DNA of 64,000 nucleotides from an uncultured Fidelibacterota bacterium (GTDB taxonomy: Bacteria; Fidelibacterota; Marinisomatia; Marinisomatales; TCS55). Location of the stretch: NCBI GenBank assembly GCA_902615915.1, contig CACMQQ010000008.1:1-64000 (forward strand), written 5' to 3'. The notes under the pieces were generated by a model, which was not told the origin of the DNA, made no database searches, and saw only the letters and a program-made list of their open reading frames with translations. Of the stretch, positions 23,157 through 37,623 are shown piece by piece (the first letter of the stretch is position 1; the number at the start of each line of letters is the position of its first letter). Both the position numbers and the translations under genes were made by a program.

Positions 23157-23480
23157 ATGAACCAAGAAAACATTGTCTACTCTACTGATCCCAATTTTTC
23201 TCTAACTTCAGATATTGTTGAATCAGAATCAATTCTTAACGATAAACAAAATCTTCGAGTTCATTTAGATAGACGAAAGGGAGGTAAGATTGTTACGATT
23301 ATAAGAGGCTATCAGGGACCTATATCTGAATTGAAGACCTTAGCCAACTCTTTAAAGAAAAAATTGTCTGTTGGCGGATCTGTAAAAAATGACGAAATCC
23401 TCTTACAGGGTAATTTGAGAGAGAAGGTTTTAAAATTCTTATTAAACAACAATTTTAATGCTAAACCTAGTGGTGGTTAA
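23157..23480 (+). CDS. SUI1/YciH-family translation factor-like protein
   Basis: This 107-residue protein has the SUI1 core: 'DRRKGGKIVTIIRGYQG' (about residues 38-54), 'LKKKLSVGGSVKNDEILLQG' and 'LREKVLKFL'. Bacterial YciH-like proteins are relatives of eIF1 that influence start-site fidelity. It lies just upstream of the putative selenoprotein gene, separated by 2 nt, and is probably co-transcribed with it. Confidence 0.85.
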   Translation: MNQENIVYSTDPNFSLTSDIVESESILNDKQNLRVHLDRRKGGKIVTIIRGYQGPISELKTLANSLKKKLSVGGSVKNDEILLQGNLREKVLKFLLNNNFNAKPSGG

Positions 23481-23482
23481 AA

Positions 23483-24640
23483 ATGTTAAAGAATATAAAA
23501 AAAATACAACATATCTTTTTGTGGATCTTTTTATCATTGATTGTAGAATCATGTGGTAAATCAAATGCTGCCTCCACCATGGATGCTGTATTATTAGTCA
23601 CAACTAATGTTCAGGGTCAATTAGACCCTTGTGGATGAAAAAATAATCCACTTGGCGGTCTGCCGAGAAGATATAGTTATATAAATCAAGTAAAGCAAAG
23701 CGGTATAGATCCAATTCTTTTAGATGCAGGTGATGCACTTTTTGACAATCAATACCTTGTCCCTAACAAAGAAGAGTCGTCTAAGTTAAAGGCAAATACG
23801 ATTTTAAGCACCACTCAAAAGATGGGTGAATATCTATATAACGTGGGAAACCATGATTTTGCAGCAGGGTATGAATTTTTGGTTGAAATGCAATCAAAAT
23901 ATGATGTTGGCTTTATTTCATCGAACATAGTAAAAGCTGGAACAGATGAGCTCGCTTTTTTAGATCATAAGATTTTTGATAGGAATGGTATCAAAATTGG
24001 TGTTTTTGGTTTAATGCAAAAAATCCCTTCCTTTGTTAAAGAGGTTGAGGTTAATGATTTATCTGAGGTTGCAAGAAATAAAATAGAGGAGTTAAGACCA
24101 CAAGTTGATATATTGGTGTTATTATTAAATGCTGATAAAAAATCACATAATGAACTTTCATCGGATCTCAAAACTGTTGATTACGTATTTTTAAGCAGAG
24201 AGACAACTCGCACACGTCCTGAGTCAAAACAGCCTGAGAATGGACCTTTAAAATACTGTTTTGGTATACAAGGAAAATATGTAGGAAGATTTGATATAAA
24301 GATTGCTGATAAATCTAAACCCATTGAGGATATTACTGCCCCTATGATGACCATAAAGACTTTTGAAACAAGATTGAACAATCTTCAAAAGAAAGATCCT
24401 AGCAAGCCGCTTGAAGAAATATATAGAAGCAATCTTAATGCGTTAAATTTAATTGCGAGGCTTAAACAGGGGATTAAAGACTCTAAAGAAAAAACAAGCA
24501 ATCTTACGAACTCTTCTTACTTCAATCTTATTTATCTTAATTCTAAAGTACCAAGCGAAAAAGCTACTTTAAATCTTGTAAATGAAACATTGAAAACTTG
24601 TGATGAGCTTGATAAAGAAGGCAAAAAAATATCGCCCTAA
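23483..24640 (+). CDS. Metallophosphatase lipoprotein with in-frame TGA, putative selenoprotein
   Basis: ATG 23483 opens a 385-residue frame with a lipoprotein signal (lipobox ending VESC, Cys24), broken only by TGA at 23636-23638 (codon 52). Read through, it gives 'TNVQGQLDPCG-U-KNNPLGG' followed by LPRR. Related metallophosphatase/5'-nucleotidase proteins show PCGC..NP.GGL.RR here, so TGA sits at a conserved Cys. Downstream are the family's metal motifs GDALFD (from residue 83) and GNHD (122-125). A SECIS-like hairpin follows the TGA. No other stop interrupts the frame. A caller would start wrongly at 23822. It overlaps the rhodanese start (TAATG). An inactivating mutation or sequence error is the alternative. 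Confidence 0.75.
23651..23667 (+). promoter_or_regulatory. Putative bacterial SECIS element
   Basis: CTTGGC (23651-23656) pairs with GCCGAG (23662-23667) over 6 bp including one T-G pair. The 5-nt loop GGTCT begins with GG. The loop starts 18 nt after the TGA (23636-23638), inside the 16-37 nt window known for bacterial SECIS hairpins recognised by SelB. Confidence 0.7.
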
Positions 24641-25128
24641 TGCAATATTTAGATAAACCTTTTAATCAGGTTGTATTTTTTGTAGTTATTTCAATTTTTT
24701 TATCTTTCAGTTCAAATCTAGTTAGAAAAGATTCCATTCCACTTTTAGCAAAAAAACTAGAAATAACTGAAGATATTGATCTTGACAGTGATGAATCTAC
24801 CCTAACAGCAATCTCGTTAGACAAAGCAAAAGAGTTTTTTGAAAATGGTGTGCTTTTTATCGATGCCCGCGATGAAGTGTATTATAACGAAGGGCACATT
24901 AGAAATGCTATGAAAAATGTTTTTTTAATGGAGTTGATATTTAATATTGAAGATAAACAAACAAAAGAAGATCCTATAGTAGTCTATTGTGGTGATCCTG
25001 GATGTGGAGATAGTGAGGACTTAGCTTACGATTTACAGAATGAGGGTTTTAAAAAATTATTTGTTTTTAAAGGAGGCTGGTTAGAGTGGTCAGCGGCTAA
25101 TTATCCAGCAGACAGGTCCAATGAATAA
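24640..25128 (+). CDS. Membrane-anchored rhodanese, CxGxxC type
   Basis: This 162-residue protein has an N-terminal TM helix (about residues 8-25) and one rhodanese domain (about 57-155: 'FIDARDEVYYNEGHI', 'GGWLEWSAANYP'). The catalytic loop reads YCGDPGCGDS with C117 and C122, the two-cysteine variant often encoded next to MauE-like proteins, rather than the usual single-Cys loop. It probably moves sulfane sulfur or exchanges thiols on the periplasmic face. It overlaps the metallophosphatase stop and the MauE start. Confidence 0.85.
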   Translation: MQYLDKPFNQVVFFVVISIFLSFSSNLVRKDSIPLLAKKLEITEDIDLDSDESTLTAISLDKAKEFFENGVLFIDARDEVYYNEGHIRNAMKNVFLMELIFNIEDKQTKEDPIVVYCGDPGCGDSEDLAYDLQNEGFKKLFVFKGGWLEWSAANYPADRSNE

Positions 25129-25573
25129 AGAGATTGAAAAATATTTAGTCATAATCTGTCGCCTTATTTTAGGGGGCGTTTTTATTTATGCTAGCCTAGA
25201 CAAGATCGCAAATCCAGCCGAATTTGCCAAAGCAGTAGGAAATTACCATGTTTTGCCTTTTGGAATGGAAAATCTCGTCGCCCTAATTTTACCGTGGGTA
25301 GAGCTAATTGTTGGAGTTTGCATCATTGCTGGAATTCTAGTGGATGGATCAAGTATACTTATTATTATAATGAATGTAATTTTTATCTTTGCGATTTCTC
25401 AGGCTTTAGCAAGAGGAATTAGTATTGAATGTGGTTGTTTCTCTACCTCTTCAGATTCTGGCAGCGCTATTGGAATTAATACCATTATAAGAGATATAGG
25501 GTATTTGATAATGGGCTTTATTGTTTTGAAAAGAAAATCAAAATGGATGGAATTTTTCCCAAAATCCATTTGA
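25121..25573 (+). CDS. MauE/DoxX-family redox membrane protein
   Basis: This 150-residue four-TM protein has the MauE-type segment 'ISIECGCFSTSSDSGSA' (two cysteines in C-G-C) after helix 3 and 'YASLDKIANPAEFAKAV' near the N-terminus. MauE-like proteins supply or relay electrons for periplasmic disulfide chemistry. It is the third gene of the redox operon 23483-25573, overlapping the rhodanese by 8 nt. Confidence 0.85.
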   Translation: MNKEIEKYLVIICRLILGGVFIYASLDKIANPAEFAKAVGNYHVLPFGMENLVALILPWVELIVGVCIIAGILVDGSSILIIIMNVIFIFAISQALARGISIECGCFSTSSDSGSAIGINTIIRDIGYLIMGFIVLKRKSKWMEFFPKSI

Positions 25574-25948: not shown

Positions 25949-28900
25949 TTGAAAATTTTACACAAAACATTAGCTTTTTTAGTCATCTTAAATCTTGCTA
26001 AATCTCAAACCCAAATCGGATCAGATATAGACGGAGAAGCAGCTGGTGATGAGGCCAGCGTTGTATCTTTGAGCGCAAATGGAAAAAATATTGCAGTAGG
26101 CGGCTATTATAACAATGGAAATGGAACTAGATCTGGACATGTCAGAGTGTTTTCATACAACGGTAGTGCCTGGGTTCAGACTGGCTCAGATATTGATGGA
26201 GAAGCCGCTCAGGACAGGTCTGGTAATTCAGTGTCAATGAATGCTAATGGCGATATAGTTGCAATAGGTGGTTATTTAAATGATGGCACAGGTTCAAATG
26301 CTGGACATGTCAGAGTGTTTTCATACAACGGGAGTGCCTGGGTTCAGTTGGGGTCGGACATAGACGGAGAAGCCGCCGATGATTATTTTGGTCACGCAAT
26401 TTCTCTGAATGTTGATGGTGATAGGATAGCAATTGGAGCAAATACAAATGATGGCACAGGTTCAAATGCTGGACATGTCAGAGTGTTTTCATACAACGGG
26501 AGTGCCTGGGTTCAGTTGGGGTCGGACATAGACGGAGAAGCCGCCGATGATAATTTTGGAGGAAAAATTTCTCTCAGTAGCAGTGGAAATAGAATAGCAA
26601 TTGGCGGAAGATTTAACGATGGTAATGGATCAAACTCAGGGCATGTTAGGGTATTTAAATGGGATGATAGTAGTTGGTCACAGATTCAAAACGACATAAA
26701 TGGAGAGGATAGTGATAATTCTTTTGGATCATCCATTTCATTAAATGCTACTGGCGACATACTCTCAGTTGGAGCCTCTGATAATGATGGAAATGGTACC
26801 TATTCTGGCCACGTTCGAGTATTTGAATTGCAATCATCAACAGATTTACCGTATATAAATAGCACCACTCTATCTGCTGATAACAGCCTTGTCACCATAG
26901 AGTTTAGTGAGGAGGTTTTTAATTCTAATTCAGGCATAGGAGATATTGAGGCTTCAGATTTTGGATTATCAATAACAGGCGGAATTGCTAATATAGCATC
27001 CTCAACACCAGCTAGTATTTCTAAAAGTGGAAATGTTTATACGCTTGGTGTTACTTATTCAGGAAATCCTAACGGTAGCGAAACTTTAAGCGTAGTACCA
27101 ATTTCAAATAGTATTTTTGATGCGGTTGGTAAATCGGTATCAACATCCCAATCAAACAATACGGTTTCACTCAATGATAAAGCTGGCCCCACCATCGCTA
27201 TCACCGCTACCGATGGCTCTAACGCGGTCGCGGATGGGGCAATCACCAACGATAATACCTTAACGGTCACGTTTACCGCTAGCGAAGCAACATCTAACTT
27301 TGCCGCAAGCGATATCACTGTCTCTGGGGGTGCGATAAGTAGTTTCTCTGCCACTAGCTCTACCGTCTATACCGCTACCTTCACCCCAAGTGCATCAGGC
27401 GCAACCACCATTGATGTGGCTGCTAACACCTTCACCGATGCTGCGGGCAATAGCAACACCGCTGCTAGCCAGTTCAACTGGACCTATGATAATGTAGTGC
27501 CCACTATGTCCATCACAGCCACCAATGGTTCCAGTATTGTTAGTGATGGGGCAATTACCAATGATGACTCGCTTGTGGTTACGTTTACCGCTAGCGAAGC
27601 AACATCTAACTTTGCCGCAAGCGATATCACTATCTCAGGAGGTACGATCTCAAATTTTTTTGCCACCAATATTACCATCAGTCAAAAAGAATCTAATAAA
27701 GGGGGTGGTGGTGACATGCACTATCAAACTTTTACTCCTGAAGAAAATATGTTGCTTGATTCTATTGCAGTAAAACACGGGTTTCCTCATGATACAGAAG
27801 AGAGATCAATAAAACTAAAACTATATAAAGGCTCTGGTGTCGCTGGCACTTTGCTTGCAGAAGCTAATAATTCCCACAAGGGTGACACAGATGATGAAAA
27901 TGATTACTATGCTTATTCCTTTAGCGGACAAAATATTTCCTTGACCGCTGATTCAGTTTACACATGGCAAATATACTTTGAAGGAAGCCAAACAACTGGA
28001 TGGATAGATTTTTCAGATGCCAATCCATATCCTGGTGGCTATGGCTATTATTGTTGTGATAATTATACAGATGATGATTTTTTATTTGTGATTAGTGGAT
28101 CGAACTCTTCCGTTTACACCGCCACCTTTACCCCTAGCGCTACAGGCGCAACCACCATCGACGTGGCTACTAACAAGTTCACTGATGCTGCGGGTAACAA
28201 TAACACCGCTGCTACCCAGTTCAACTGGAATTATGATGGTACTTCCCCTACAGTTTCATTGGTATCCTCTACTTCGCCTGATGGTACTTATGGTGTGGGA
28301 GATACTATTGTAATTACAATCATTTTCAGTGAAACTGTGACAGTGACTGGTATACCTCAGCTTGAGCTCAATCTTGACAGCTTAGCTAGTAATGCTACTA
28401 ATCTGCAAAGAATTAATTATGAATCAGGTACAGGCGGTACAACTCTTATATTTGATTATACTGTCGCAAAAGGAGAGTTTAGCAATGATCTTTCTTACTC
28501 AAAAACAACTGCGTTATCACTTAACGGGGGAACAATAAAGGACGCTGTTGGAAATAATGCAGACTTAACCCTTGCTAGTCCTGGATCTATTGGTTCTTTA
28601 AGCGCTAATAAAGCAATTGTTATAGATGGAAATACAAAGCCAATATTATTAGATATAGCAGAAATATCAATGAGCGAAGACTCAAGACAAACTTTGATTT
28701 TAAGTGCGACTGATGAGCAAGGAGATGACATAGTTTACTCAGCAACGTCCGATACAAATGCAGTGATCTTAAATATAGAAAAAGATACATTATCATTTAT
28801 GCCAATTACCGATTGGTTTGGCAAAACCGCAATAACAGTTATTGCATCAGATGGAAAACTAAATGATAGCAAAGATTTTGAATTAAGTGTTTTTAACGTT

Positions 28901-29563
28901 CAAGATCCACCTGCATCCTTCAGCTGGATAAGCAGCGCTACCGATACCATCAACATCACCAAGACCAATTTTCAAGACAGCTATAACTTGCAGTGGTCAG
29001 AAAGCATCGATGTGGATAAAGAAACTGTGAATTATATTCTTTTCGCAGGAACAGGATCCTCTGCAAAAGAGATTGTTTATGATACTACTAGCGCATCAGT
29101 GTTAATTCCATATATGGCATTTTTAGAAAACACTTTTGAGCAAATCCCAATGCTGCCTGCAGCCACCGTTCGCTTCAGTGTCAAAGCCACAGACGGAATA
29201 GACACGGTCAATATAACGGGAGAAGATAGGGTGGTGTATGTTAATCGTTATGATTACCTATCTACCGATGATATTGCAGCTCCGACTGATTATGCTTTGC
29301 ACGATAACTATCCCAATCCTTTTAATCCAACTACTCAGATCCGCTTTGATATGCCGATCATGGGAGATGTCCGTTTGACTATCTACAACATGCTTGGACA
29401 AAAAGTAAAAGAGTATCAAATGAATGGATTACCTGTAGGTTATCACACCCTTACTTGGAATGCCACCAATAACTTGGGCGACCCTGTTAGTGCAGGCATA
29501 TACTTCTATCAACTACAAACAAAAACGTTTACCAAGACCAAGCGGATGGTACTTTTAAAATAG
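25949..29563 (+). CDS. Large repeat-rich surface protein with sorting tail
   Basis: This 1204-residue secreted protein has a signal peptide (about 1-20), then about five ~56-residue repeats resembling integrin-type beta-propeller blades (residues 25-300, '[14 protein letters not shown]' and '[15 protein letters not shown]'). Ig-like domains follow at about 410-510 and, split by an insert, about 515-755. Next come another Ig/SwmB-like domain, a cadherin-like domain (about 890-990), and a C-terminal sorting tail (from about 1120) '[16 protein letters not shown] ... [10 protein letters not shown]'. That tail is the export signal type of T9SS-like systems. It starts with TTG. Part of the Ig region is visibly richer in GC than the rest, suggesting mosaic origin. 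Confidence 0.85.
26278..26551 (+). repeat. Exact 106-bp direct repeat within the surface gene
   Basis: Positions 26278-26383 and 26446-26551 are identical over 106 bp, offset by 168 bp (56 codons, one repeat unit). The identity at synonymous sites indicates a very recent duplication or gene conversion of a blade unit. Confidence 0.95.
27269..27631 (+). repeat. Exact 51-bp repeat in two Ig-like domains
   Basis: Positions 27269-27319 and 27581-27631 are identical over 51 bp, offset by 312 bp (104 codons, one Ig-like domain). The flanking sequence is similar but diverged, as in gene conversion between tandem domains. Confidence 0.9.
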
Positions 29564-35505: not shown

Positions 35506-36207
35506 ATGATAAAAATAAATAATGCTAGTATAAGTTTTAAAGAAAAGCCTGCCTTATCAAACCTTTCTTTGGAGGTTAAACCCGGAGAAATTTTGGGTTT
35601 ATTGGGAGCAAATGGTGCTGGCAAATCAACAACCATTAATATGCTTTTGGGTTTTTTAAAATCAGGAGAAGGAGATGTGTCTATAAATCAATTGGATTGC
35701 TATGATGAGCGGGCACAGGTAAGACGATTGGTAGGATACATTCCAGAAAATGTTAACCTTTATCCATATCTATCTGGGGAGGAGAATTTGGATTACTTTT
35801 GTAAAATATCTGGGATAGAGTATGCAAGTTCAGAGCTAAAGAACTTTTTAGAAAAATGTGGCTTACCATTAAAAGATCACAGCAAAAAAATCTCTGAATA
35901 TTCTAAAGGCATGCGTCAGAAAGTAGGTATAGCTATAGCATATGCCAAGAAAGCGAAAGTATACTTACTTGATGAACCCTCTAGCGGCTTAGATCCCATG
36001 GCAAGCAATGAATTGACAATATTATTAAAAGAGTTGGCAAAAGAAGGCGCTTCGATTCTGATGGCATCACATGATATTTTTAGAGTAAGGGAAGTCTGTG
36101 ATCGCATCGGTATCTTAAAACAAGGCAAATTAATGAAAGAATTAAAAAGCAAAGCTATCACGGCTAATCAGCTTGAAAAATTATATTTAAACTTTATGAA
36201 AGATTGA
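35506..36207 (+). CDS. ABC transporter ATP-binding protein
   Basis: This 233-residue ABC ATPase has Walker A GANGAGKSTT (about residues 34-43), Q-loop region 'GYIPENVNLYPYL', signature 'YSKGMRQKVG' and Walker B 'VYLLDEPSSGLDP'. It pairs with the two membrane proteins downstream as an ABC-2 type exporter. The pattern is NosF/CcmA-like. Confidence 0.9.
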   Translation: MIKINNASISFKEKPALSNLSLEVKPGEILGLLGANGAGKSTTINMLLGFLKSGEGDVSINQLDCYDERAQVRRLVGYIPENVNLYPYLSGEENLDYFCKISGIEYASSELKNFLEKCGLPLKDHSKKISEYSKGMRQKVGIAIAYAKKAKVYLLDEPSSGLDPMASNELTILLKELAKEGASILMASHDIFRVREVCDRIGILKQGKLMKELKSKAITANQLEKLYLNFMKD

Positions 36208-36213
36208 TTAGCA

Positions 36214-37623
36214 ATGTGGCAGATTATCAAAAATGAATGGTCTTCTTTTTATAGAGATCGTGTCCTTTTGGGAGTTTTTAGTTCTTTTCTAATTCTTTTA
36301 TCGATAACAGTATCTCTGGGTTCGATACATGTCGAACATCAAAATACACATCACGCTTCATCAAGTGAACATATAAGAGATAAATGGGAAAATATTCAAG
36401 AGATGAACCCACACAGTGCTGCTCATTATGGAACATATGTTTTTAAACCCACTACATTATTAAGCGGTCTTGATGACGGAGTAAGCAACATTACTGGAAA
36501 TGTACTTAAGGTTGAGGGGCACGTTCAAAATGAAATAGTTCACTCAGAAGCCTCTCAAAGCCAAGCGGTTTCAAAGTTTGGTAAACTCAAGAGTGCTCTT
36601 TTGTTGCAGTACATAGTTCCTATTTTCTTAATATTTCTATCTTTTCAAACCATAAATGGTGAAAAGTTATCAGGCAGGCTAAAGTTGTTAATTGCGCAAG
36701 GAGCTAGCAGTTCTAAGATAATATTCAGCAAAGCTCTTTCTGTTTGGGTGATTGGTTTAATGTTATTATTGGTGACCGTTTTTATGTATCTATTACTTAA
36801 TCTTGGTGCAATTAATTATGATACAATTCTTCGGTTGTCTTTTTTTATAATATCTTACTCCCTATATTATTTCATAATCGCCTTTTTGACAACTCTCTTA
36901 TCAATCTCATTTAATAATACTAGCACAGCGCTCACCTCAATGCTTGCTGTTTGGGTCGTTTGGACCATATTCTTACCAAACATATTGATGAGTACTGTGG
37001 AGAGTCAGCACGAGTTACCTAGTCGTGACATTTTTAAATCAAACATGAAAGAGGATCGCTCTAAGGGCATTGATGGTCATAGTCCATCTAGCGATAGACT
37101 GGTTGCTTTGAGAGAAAAGGTTTTAAAGGATTATGGAGTTGATAGTCTTTCTCAGCTATCAATTAATTTCCGAGGAATTGTTATGCAAGAAGATGAAGAG
37201 TATGGTAATAAGGTTTGGGATAAACACTTTGGTAATTTGCGCACTGTATTAAAAAATCAAAAGAAAAGCTATCAGCTAGGAGGAATAATTAATCCTTTCA
37301 TAGCACTACAAAATACCAGCAAAGGTTTTGCTGCAAGCGATAATTTGCATCACCAGGATTTTTTAGTTCAGGTTGAAAACTATAGAAGGGTATTTGTTAG
37401 AACGCTTAATAACAAAGATGCATATGGCGGCTCTAAAACCGGGGAAAGAGGCTGGAAAGCAGATAATGCATTTTTTAAGTCAGTTCCAGATTTTGTTTTC
37501 AAGCCTCTTAAAATTATGAAAGTTTTTAAAGATTATGTATTTGATCTAGCAATATTAATTATTTGGGTTCTTGTAATCACTTTGTTATTGATAAATAAAA
37601 GTAAAAGAATCCCAATAGTATGA
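36214..37623 (+). CDS. ABC-2 type permease with DUF3526-like ectodomain (1)
   Basis: This 469-residue membrane protein has a TM helix at about 20-38, a large extracytoplasmic segment with several His/Ser-rich stretches ('EHQNTHHASSSEH'), a cluster of helices at about 130-260, and a second large ectodomain before the final helix. It is the ABC-2/DUF3526 plan. It overlaps the second permease by 4 nt. Confidence 0.8.
   Translation: MWQIIKNEWSSFYRDRVLLGVFSSFLILLSITVSLGSIHVEHQNTHHASSSEHIRDKWENIQEMNPHSAAHYGTYVFKPTTLLSGLDDGVSNITGNVLKVEGHVQNEIVHSEASQSQAVSKFGKLKSALLLQYIVPIFLIFLSFQTINGEKLSGRLKLLIAQGASSSKIIFSKALSVWVIGLMLLLVTVFMYLLLNLGAINYDTILRLSFFIISYSLYYFIIAFLTTLLSISFNNTSTALTSMLAVWVVWTIFLPNILMSTVESQHELPSRDIFKSNMKEDRSKGIDGHSPSSDRLVALREKVLKDYGVDSLSQLSINFRGIVMQEDEEYGNKVWDKHFGNLRTVLKNQKKSYQLGGIINPFIALQNTSKGFAASDNLHHQDFLVQVENYRRVFVRTLNNKDAYGGSKTGERGWKADNAFFKSVPDFVFKPLKIMKVFKDYVFDLAILIIWVLVITLLLINKSKRIPIV

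What the first reader, a model, noticed from the sequence alone, without database searches (positions are those of the whole stretch)
23483..24640. Candidate selenoprotein: metallophosphatase with a Cys-Gly-Sec motif
The frame 23483-24640 is interrupted only by TGA 23636-23638. Read through it yields 'QLDPCG-U-KNNPLGG', exactly where homologous metallophosphatase/5'-nucleotidase proteins carry CGC. A 6-bp hairpin with a GG-starting loop sits 18 nt downstream, as required for a bacterial SECIS. TGA is a normal stop elsewhere in the window, and both flanks of the TGA belong to one family. I know of no well-described selenoprotein of this family.
Basis: partly seen in the sequence, partly recalled or inferred. 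Interest (0 to 1): 0.93.

Follow-up and report, generated by a model that had tools for sequence, protein, structure and literature searches.

The report
Selenoprotein on a nucleotidase-like fold
An uncultured marine bacterium very probably reads one UGA "stop" as the selenium amino acid selenocysteine in a protein built like a nucleotide-cutting enzyme; the wider selenoprotein family was already listed, but in this branch most of the enzyme's usual metal-binding residues are gone while the selenium motif is kept, which points to an electron- or sulfur-handling protein.

Summary
In detail: frame 23483-24640 is broken only by TGA 23636-23638 and reads PCG-U-KNNPLGG. Selenocysteine is strongly supported. 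TGA stands at this codon in 35 distinct loci inspected (the window included); 17 others have TGT/TGC. A hairpin with loop GGUCU starts 18 nt after the TGA; the octamer GGCGGTCT is in 82/82 distinct TGA sequences and 2/17 Cys sequences. Where the best homologue has TGA, tRNA-Sec is found in 81/92 genomes; where not, in 2/20. The genome has selA, selD (itself with an in-frame TGA) and a frameshifted selB; tRNA-Sec was not found in this 86.7%-complete assembly but is in a same-genus genome.
"No known family" is wrong: UshA-like CxU selenoproteins were listed in 2008 and NCBIfam has NF041198. This is a divergent short variant (193 bits, cut-off 275). Of seven di-metal ligands of 5'-nucleotidases, six are mostly lost in 65 sequences of the Marinimicrobia group while CG[U/C] is kept; two deltaproteobacterial-type members are fused to a tetraheme cytochrome; here the gene sits before a rhodanese and a MauE-like gene. 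I infer a selenothiol redox lipoprotein.

The parts
23483..24640 (+). Selenoprotein gene, 385 aa read through (stop codon included in the coordinates); UshA/5'-nucleotidase-like fold, N-terminal signal with lipobox-like Cys24
   Evidence: AF2 mean pLDDT 94.7; Foldseek to 5'-nucleotidases, best E 3.4e-18, TMq 0.54-0.66 in the 50 listed. Lipobox is a reading by eye, not tested with a predictor.
23636..23638 (+). UGA codon read as selenocysteine (Sec52) in the Cys50-Gly-Sec52 motif
   Evidence: TGA at this codon in 35 distinct loci (window included); Cys (TGT 9, TGC 8) in the 17 other distinct loci with the motif.
23651..23667 (+). bSECIS hairpin: 6-bp stem, apical loop GGUCU (23657-23661); conserved octamer GGCGGTCT at 23654-23661
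23157..23480 (+). SUI1/YciH-like translation factor gene directly upstream
   Evidence: directly upstream in 37 of 73 named related loci with >=400 nt upstream.
24640..25128 (+). Rhodanese-domain protein with motif YCxxxxCG (no Sec); its start codon overlaps the stop of the selenoprotein gene by one base
25121..25573 (+). MauE/DoxX-like membrane protein with a CGC motif; overlaps the rhodanese gene

Best explanation
The gene encodes a selenoprotein. SelB with Sec-tRNA decodes UGA 23636-23638 with the help of the hairpin just behind it, giving Cys50-Gly-Sec52. The product is a probable lipoprotein on the UshA/5'-nucleotidase fold in which most of the two-metal site has decayed and the CGU loop, which follows the first beta strand where nucleotidases bind metal, is the conserved working part. 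I infer that it works as a selenothiol/disulfide (selenylsulfide) redox protein in the periplasm that exchanges electrons or sulfane sulfur with the rhodanese and the MauE-like membrane protein encoded directly behind it; in two deltaproteobacterial-type relatives a fused tetraheme cytochrome c554 domain takes that electron-transfer place. Shown by computation: conserved Sec codon, hairpin, co-occurrence with Sec machinery, fold, loss of ligands, fusion, gene linkage. Inferred: incorporation of Sec itself, export, redox chemistry, partners, substrate (a sulfur compound is the best guess).
For: Sec: the 30 best matches (the window one of them) each have exactly one TGA; a quick tree of 128 sequences puts the window protein in an all-Sec clade of 19, and the Cys label needs at least 4 changes on it. 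Hairpin: GGCGGTCT in 82 of 82 distinct TGA sequences with the CGU motif against 2 of 17 Cys sequences, although both encode Gly-Gly-[Leu/Ile/Phe]; mean folding z against synonymous-codon shuffles -1.08 (TGA) and +0.25 (Cys), Mann-Whitney p 2.5e-5; stem of >=5 contiguous pairs in 53 of 59 distinct TGA 24-mers and 0 of 16 Cys ones (longest 3); one stem position shows GC, AT, TA, GT, CG and TG pairs. Machinery: selA 507.6 and selD 390.4 bits, over cut-off, in this genome; SelD has its own in-frame TGA in GGGUACK. tRNA-Sec in 81 of 92 genomes whose best homologue has a TGA and 2 of 20 without (p 1.8e-11; 2 of 18, p 2.3e-10, without two genomes not inspected). SelB over cut-off in 7 of 7 TGA relatives and 0 of 6 Cys genomes searched. 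Redox reading: Cys50 65/65 and the Sec/Cys column 65/65 (64 TGA, one real Cys, L178) against ligands kept: D41 0/65, H43 25/65, N116 1/65, H217 4/65, H252 4/65, Q254 0/65; only D84 65/65. Tetraheme domain in L197 and L199. Rhodanese then MauE directly downstream in 39 of 63 named loci with >=1080 nt downstream, and the same pair upstream in 3 others, L175-L177.
Against: tRNA-Sec was not found in this assembly: 16 sub-threshold hits, of which the 8 best were looked at and are other tRNAs; none; a same-genus tRNA-Sec used as DNA query matched 14 bases only. selB is split by a frameshift in a run of T. The same-genus genome G149 has tRNA-Sec, but only a weak (27%) match to this protein and no SelB over cut-off were found there. 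11 of 92 TGA genomes show no tRNA-Sec (incomplete assemblies, or misses under the stricter filter the tool reports above 40 genomes). Sec/Cys states cluster by clade, so the Fisher p values overstate independence, and the loci contain near-duplicates (named and unnamed copies of the same genomes). For single sequences the synonymous-shuffle test is weak (window z -1.4; 41 of 82 below -1). For the redox part: rhodanese/MauE linkage was not found in 21 of 63 named loci (one of them, L191, has both further away) nor in any of the 16 Cys loci looked at; the cytochrome fusion is in 2 of 148 locus frames, both outside this phylum; six deltaproteobacterial-type sequences still keep three or four ligands; the CGU site relative to any partner was not modelled; the ligand columns rest on one sequence alignment and on E. 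coli UshA numbers that are recalled.
Confidence: 0.8

Rival explanations
1. Nonsense mutation, pseudogene or sequencing error: the gene is broken or the base is wrong.
For: The assembly has a frameshift in selB, possibly a homopolymer error.
Against: TGA is at the same codon in 34 other distinct loci; in a named collection that partly overlaps the first, 77 of 78 loci have a TGA in the motif; the six nearest relatives are 54-58% identical across the whole frame on both sides of it.
Confidence: 0.01
2. TGA is reassigned (for example to Trp) genome-wide.
For: None found.
Against: 13 of 47 ORFs >=150 aa in the window end at TGA, 12 of them followed by another stop within 21 codons; the tRNA-Trp seen has anticodon CCA; homologues without TGA carry Cys in 17 of 17 distinct loci with the motif.
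Confidence: 0.005
3. A selenium-containing phosphoesterase: the fold still hydrolyses nucleotides or a SoxB-like sulfur ester, with Sec as metal ligand or nucleophile.
For: Fold and profile similarity to 5'-nucleotidases and SoxB; the D84 equivalent is invariant; deltaproteobacterial-type relatives keep His at the H217 and H252 positions (6 of 6 each), so metal could still bind there.
Against: In 65 sequences of the Marinimicrobia group 61 keep one or two of seven ligands and 4 keep three; the Asn of the GNHD in the window protein is peculiar to it (1 of 65).
Confidence: 0.15
4. Selenium carrier or sensor rather than a redox enzyme: the CGU site binds metal, selenium or a thiol for signalling.
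For: A SUI1-like translation factor lies directly upstream in 37 of 73 loci; no substrate known.
Against: Fusion to a tetraheme cytochrome and linkage to rhodanese/MauE point to electron or sulfur transfer.
Confidence: 0.1

Closest known systems
NCBIfam NF041198, UshA_like_PCGU, 'UshA-like (seleno)protein'
   Same: Same PCG[U/C]...LGGL motif and fold; it is the best hit of the window protein, and 71 of 71 aligned members match it at E <= 0.001.
   Different: Window protein scores 193.1 bits, under the cut-off 275, matches profile 3-384 of 519 and lacks the C-terminal part, which in L197/L199 (439 and 538.9 bits, over cut-off) holds a tetraheme cytochrome; six of seven metal ligands mostly lost in its group.
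COG0737/UshA-like CxU selenoprotein of the GOS survey (Zhang & Gladyshev 2008, PMC2398784; passages read)
   Same: COG0737 selenoprotein with CxU motif, 76 Sec and 92 Cys sequences in marine samples.
   Different: The passages read give no SECIS, operon, metal-site or cytochrome analysis of it; I did not see the sequences, so overlap with this clade is likely but untested.
E. coli UshA / CD73 5'-nucleotidases
   Same: Fold of the catalytic domain.
   Different: Metal ligands mostly missing; about 385 aa instead of 500-550; CGU motif.
SoxB thiosulfohydrolase
   Same: Profile similarity 36.6 bits.
   Different: Far under the SoxB cut-off of 550; no Sox family was named among the three neighbours scanned.
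NF049981 UshA-like (seleno)protein family 2 (CxxU)
   Same: Weak similarity, 25.7 bits against a cut-off of 140.
   Different: Listed as CxxU (PMC13188914), not CxU.

Membership tests
Bacterial selenoprotein | In-frame UGA aligned with Cys/Sec in homologues | tested here: met
Bacterial selenoprotein | bSECIS meeting the published constraints | tested here: met
   constraints read in PMC13188914. The energy limit depends on how much flank is folded (-10.0, -8.4 or, core only, -7.3).
Bacterial selenoprotein | selA, selB, selD and tRNA-Sec in the genome | tested here: inconclusive
   selA, selD met; selB present but frameshifted; tRNA-Sec not found in an 86.7%-complete assembly, found in the same-genus genome.
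Bacterial selenoprotein | Selenium in the protein | not testable with these tools
   Needs 75Se or mass spectrometry.
NF041198 UshA_like_PCGU | Score over the curated cut-off (275 bits) | tested here: not met
   193.1 bits; of 10 homologues scanned, 8 are under it and L197 and L199 pass.
NF041198 UshA_like_PCGU | PCG[U/C] motif in an UshA-like domain | tested here: met
Active 5'-nucleotidase / metallophosphatase | Di-metal ligand set (D41, H43, D84, N116, H217, H252, Q254 in E. coli UshA; numbers recalled) | tested here: not met
   Window protein has only the D84 and N116 equivalents; group counts.
5'-nucleotidase fold | Structural similarity | tested here: met

The most novel reading that the evidence does not exclude
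A nucleotidase fold has been turned into a selenium redox protein: the two-metal hydrolase site was given up step by step (six deltaproteobacterial-type sequences keep three or four of seven ligands, the Marinimicrobia group mostly one or two) while a Cys-Gly-Sec loop took over, wired either to a fused tetraheme cytochrome or to a rhodanese plus MauE-like membrane protein, for periplasmic sulfur or electron transfer.
Probability: 0.55. Interest if true: 0.68.

Novelty: new variant of a known kind. Interest (0 to 1): 0.5.

Why it matters
It gives a marine selenoprotein that the catalogues list without a function a testable one: a hydrolase fold whose metal site decayed while a selenothiol was kept, with candidate electron partners. 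It also offers a natural comparison of Sec and Cys forms: Cys lineages mostly lack tRNA-Sec and have lost the SECIS octamer, and in one case (L072/L178) a Cys codon stands before an octamer that is still there, in a genome that has tRNA-Sec.

Tried and rejected
Rejected: pseudogene/error and code reassignment (see rivals). Rfam: the whole window at gathering scores gave two tRNAs only; 23500-23800 at permissive E gave three chance hits, E >= 1.6, none a SECIS. Neighbour scans: 60 ORFs around 16 more distant loci gave no shared partner beyond small counts, nor did 34 ORFs around 8 Cys loci, apart from a few thioredoxin-like hits; one neighbour (L174) is ResA-like. So the rhodanese/MauE linkage is a feature of part of the phylum only. 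No U lies in the rhodanese matches; two MauE fragments (L173, L141) had a U away from the CGC motif, which I did not follow. A sulfur role through SoxB kinship alone was not accepted: similarity is weak.

Papers. Searches (3 papers; 13; 2; 3; 106, 10 listed; 0; 7). Searches for Marinimicrobia, SAR406 or Neomarinimicrobiota with selenoprotein/selenocysteine (55, 56, 83) and selenoprotein with metallophosphoesterase (84) showed, by listing, no paper on this clade's protein; only open PMC papers are held. Passages were read in PMC2398784, PMC13188914, PMC9312934, PMC8318568 and PMC5029168 (the last lists SAR406 single cells in a table whose heading I did not see); PMC12013277 held none of the terms sought. 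No paper was read whole.

Rows dropped before counts. tRNA-Sec table: of the 123 matching genomes, 11 were left out: the own genome, and G104, G119, G132, G022, G027, G059, G062, G071, G078, G086 (partial or weak matches). Of the 92 TGA genomes the codon was inspected in 35; for the rest only the tool's stop count was used. Of the 20 without TGA, 18 were inspected and carry CGC (G036 among them has one TAG in its match); G031 (match starts at residue 120) and G004 were not. SECIS counts: loci without a CG[U/C] motif (L080, L081, L195, L196, L198, L200), with N or too short, or identical to another were left out. In the first stem register only 30 of 59 sequences pair at all six positions; allowing a loop of 5 or 6 gives stems >=5 bp in 53 of 59, and one sequence has none. 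Alignment A3: of 78 loci, L127, L132, L152, L155, L188, L191 were left out by choice and L151, L180 by a filter for N. The '65 Marinimicrobia group' rows are the window, 58 records so titled and six titled only 'bacterium' or 'FCB group' (L138, L142, L169, L172, L173, L183).

Full report
Check of the observation. The frame 23483-24640 is interrupted only by TGA 23636-23638 and reads QLDPCG-U-KNNPLGG. It meets the bSECIS constraints quoted in PMC13188914 (passages read), with the remark that the 17-nt core alone gave -7.3 kcal/mol and that two other in-frame TGAs, both antisense to ORFs, had bSECIS-like hairpins too. TGA is a normal stop in the window (13 of 47 ORFs).

Origin. The window is contig C8 of a 1.8-Mb, 40-contig assembly, 86.7% complete.

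Is it selenocysteine? Of 149 genomes of the phylum 123 have a match, and the 30 best, the window among them, hold exactly one TGA each. In 35 distinct loci the TGA is at the CGU codon; in the 17 other distinct loci with the motif the codon is TGT or TGC. In a named collection, which overlaps the first set in part (identical proteins), 77 of 78 loci have a TGA in the motif and one, L178, has TGC; four of the 77 have the motif in another form (L195 PSGU; L196, L198, L200 CPxU). The octamer GGCGGTCT follows in 82 of 82 distinct TGA sequences with CGU and 2 of 17 Cys sequences (L072, L073), though both groups encode Gly-Gly-[Leu/Ile/Phe]; with this window's codon usage GGC-GGT-CTN would be chosen about 2.7% of the time. 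Stems of five or more contiguous pairs are in 53 of 59 distinct TGA sequences and in 0 of 16 Cys ones, with six pair types at one stem position. The energy test against synonymous shuffles is modest for single sequences (z -1.4 for the window; 41 of 82 below -1) but differs between the groups (p 2.5e-5).

Machinery. selA and selD are over their cut-offs; SelD has an in-frame TGA in GGGUACK, where Sec or Cys is known in this family (recalled). selB lies next to selA and is split by a frameshift in a run of T; seven relatives with the TGA form have it intact, and six genomes with the Cys form have none over cut-off. tRNA-Sec was not found here, but is in the same-genus genome and in 47 of the 61 genomes, the own one being among those without. 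Among 112 genomes with a usable homologue, tRNA-Sec is present in 81 of 92 with TGA and 2 of 20 without (2 of 18 inspected). The Cys label needs at least 4 changes on the tree (quick search, 128 rows), so the counts are not independent, and the tree is not rooted. One change looks recent and in the direction Sec to Cys: L072/L178 (one genome fetched twice) has TGC, the octamer is still there, its genome G024 has tRNA-Sec, and L179 and L181 beside it have TGA.

What the protein is. Pfam gives nothing; NCBIfam gives NF041198 at 193.1 bits (cut-off 275) over profile positions 3-384 of 519. AlphaFold2 on 71 sequences gave mean pLDDT 94.7, pTM 0.92, and Foldseek matched 5'-nucleotidases (first hit E 3.4e-18, TMq 0.65). 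The profile matches UshA and CD73 chains and, weaker, SoxB. Mapping UshA ligands (recalled numbers) on the alignment: in 65 sequences of the Marinimicrobia group D84 is kept in 65, H43 in 25, H217 in 4, H252 in 4, N116 in 1, D41 and Q254 in 0. Six deltaproteobacterial-type sequences keep D84 6, H217 6, H252 6, D41 2, the other three 0. Cys50 and the Sec/Cys column are 65 of 65. So this branch has given up most of its metal site and kept CG[U/C].

Context. The rhodanese gene overlaps the stop of the selenoprotein gene and the MauE-like gene overlaps the rhodanese gene. This order is in 39 of 63 named loci with >=1080 nt downstream; in L175-L177 the same two genes lie upstream; 21 of 63 have neither within the limits set; no Cys locus (0 of 16) has either in its flank. 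The rhodanese and MauE-like partners carry Cys pairs, with no in-frame Sec at the motifs where the patterns were found. L197 and L199, which pass the NF041198 cut-off (439 and 538.9 bits), carry four CxxCH motifs each and a Cytochrome_C554 domain behind the CGU domain; the other 146 of 148 locus frames (duplicates included) have no CxxCH. A protein fused to a multiheme cytochrome in one branch and encoded with a rhodanese and a MauE-like protein in another is best read as an electron- or sulfur-transfer protein. This last step is inference.

Compared with what is known. UshA-like CxU selenoproteins were listed in 2008 (PMC2398784) and are in the 2022 and 2026 catalogues (PMC9312934, PMC13188914). 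The passages read there give no function for it, no metal-site comparison, no cytochrome fusion and no such gene order; the papers were not read whole. The short form of the Marinimicrobia group is therefore filed as a new variant of a known kind, not a new selenoprotein family.

Noticed in passing
L018:1501-2427 (own genome, contig C2:10963-11889): SelD of this genome has its own in-frame TGA (GGGUACK), so it is a second likely selenoprotein.
   Followed up: partly
L011 about 2570-2625 (own genome, contig C28): selB is split by a frameshift in a run of T next to an intact selA; seven relatives have it intact. Assembly error or real was not decided.
   Followed up: partly
L072 and L178 (Marinimicrobia MT.SAG.2): Cys codon but SECIS octamer kept and tRNA-Sec present; L179 beside it has TGA: looks like a recent Sec-to-Cys change.
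   Followed up: partly
L080 4001-5020, L081 4001-5026: Paralogues in G023 and G129 have lost the CGU motif altogether (YPKKM...), beside a TGA-bearing copy elsewhere in the same genomes.
   Followed up: no
L196, L198, L200: Homologues titled Deltaproteobacteria/Syntrophaceae with CPxU (CxxU) instead of CGU.
   Followed up: no
L197:3815-5254, L199:3818-5458: UshA-like PCGU domain fused to a tetraheme cytochrome c554-like domain.
   Followed up: partly
window 35506-36207 and 36214-37620: An ABC transporter ATPase ending in TGA and the next gene lie in the same frame; ordinary neighbours.
   Followed up: yes
window 25949-29563: Large ORF of 1204 aa that looks repetitive by eye.
   Followed up: no
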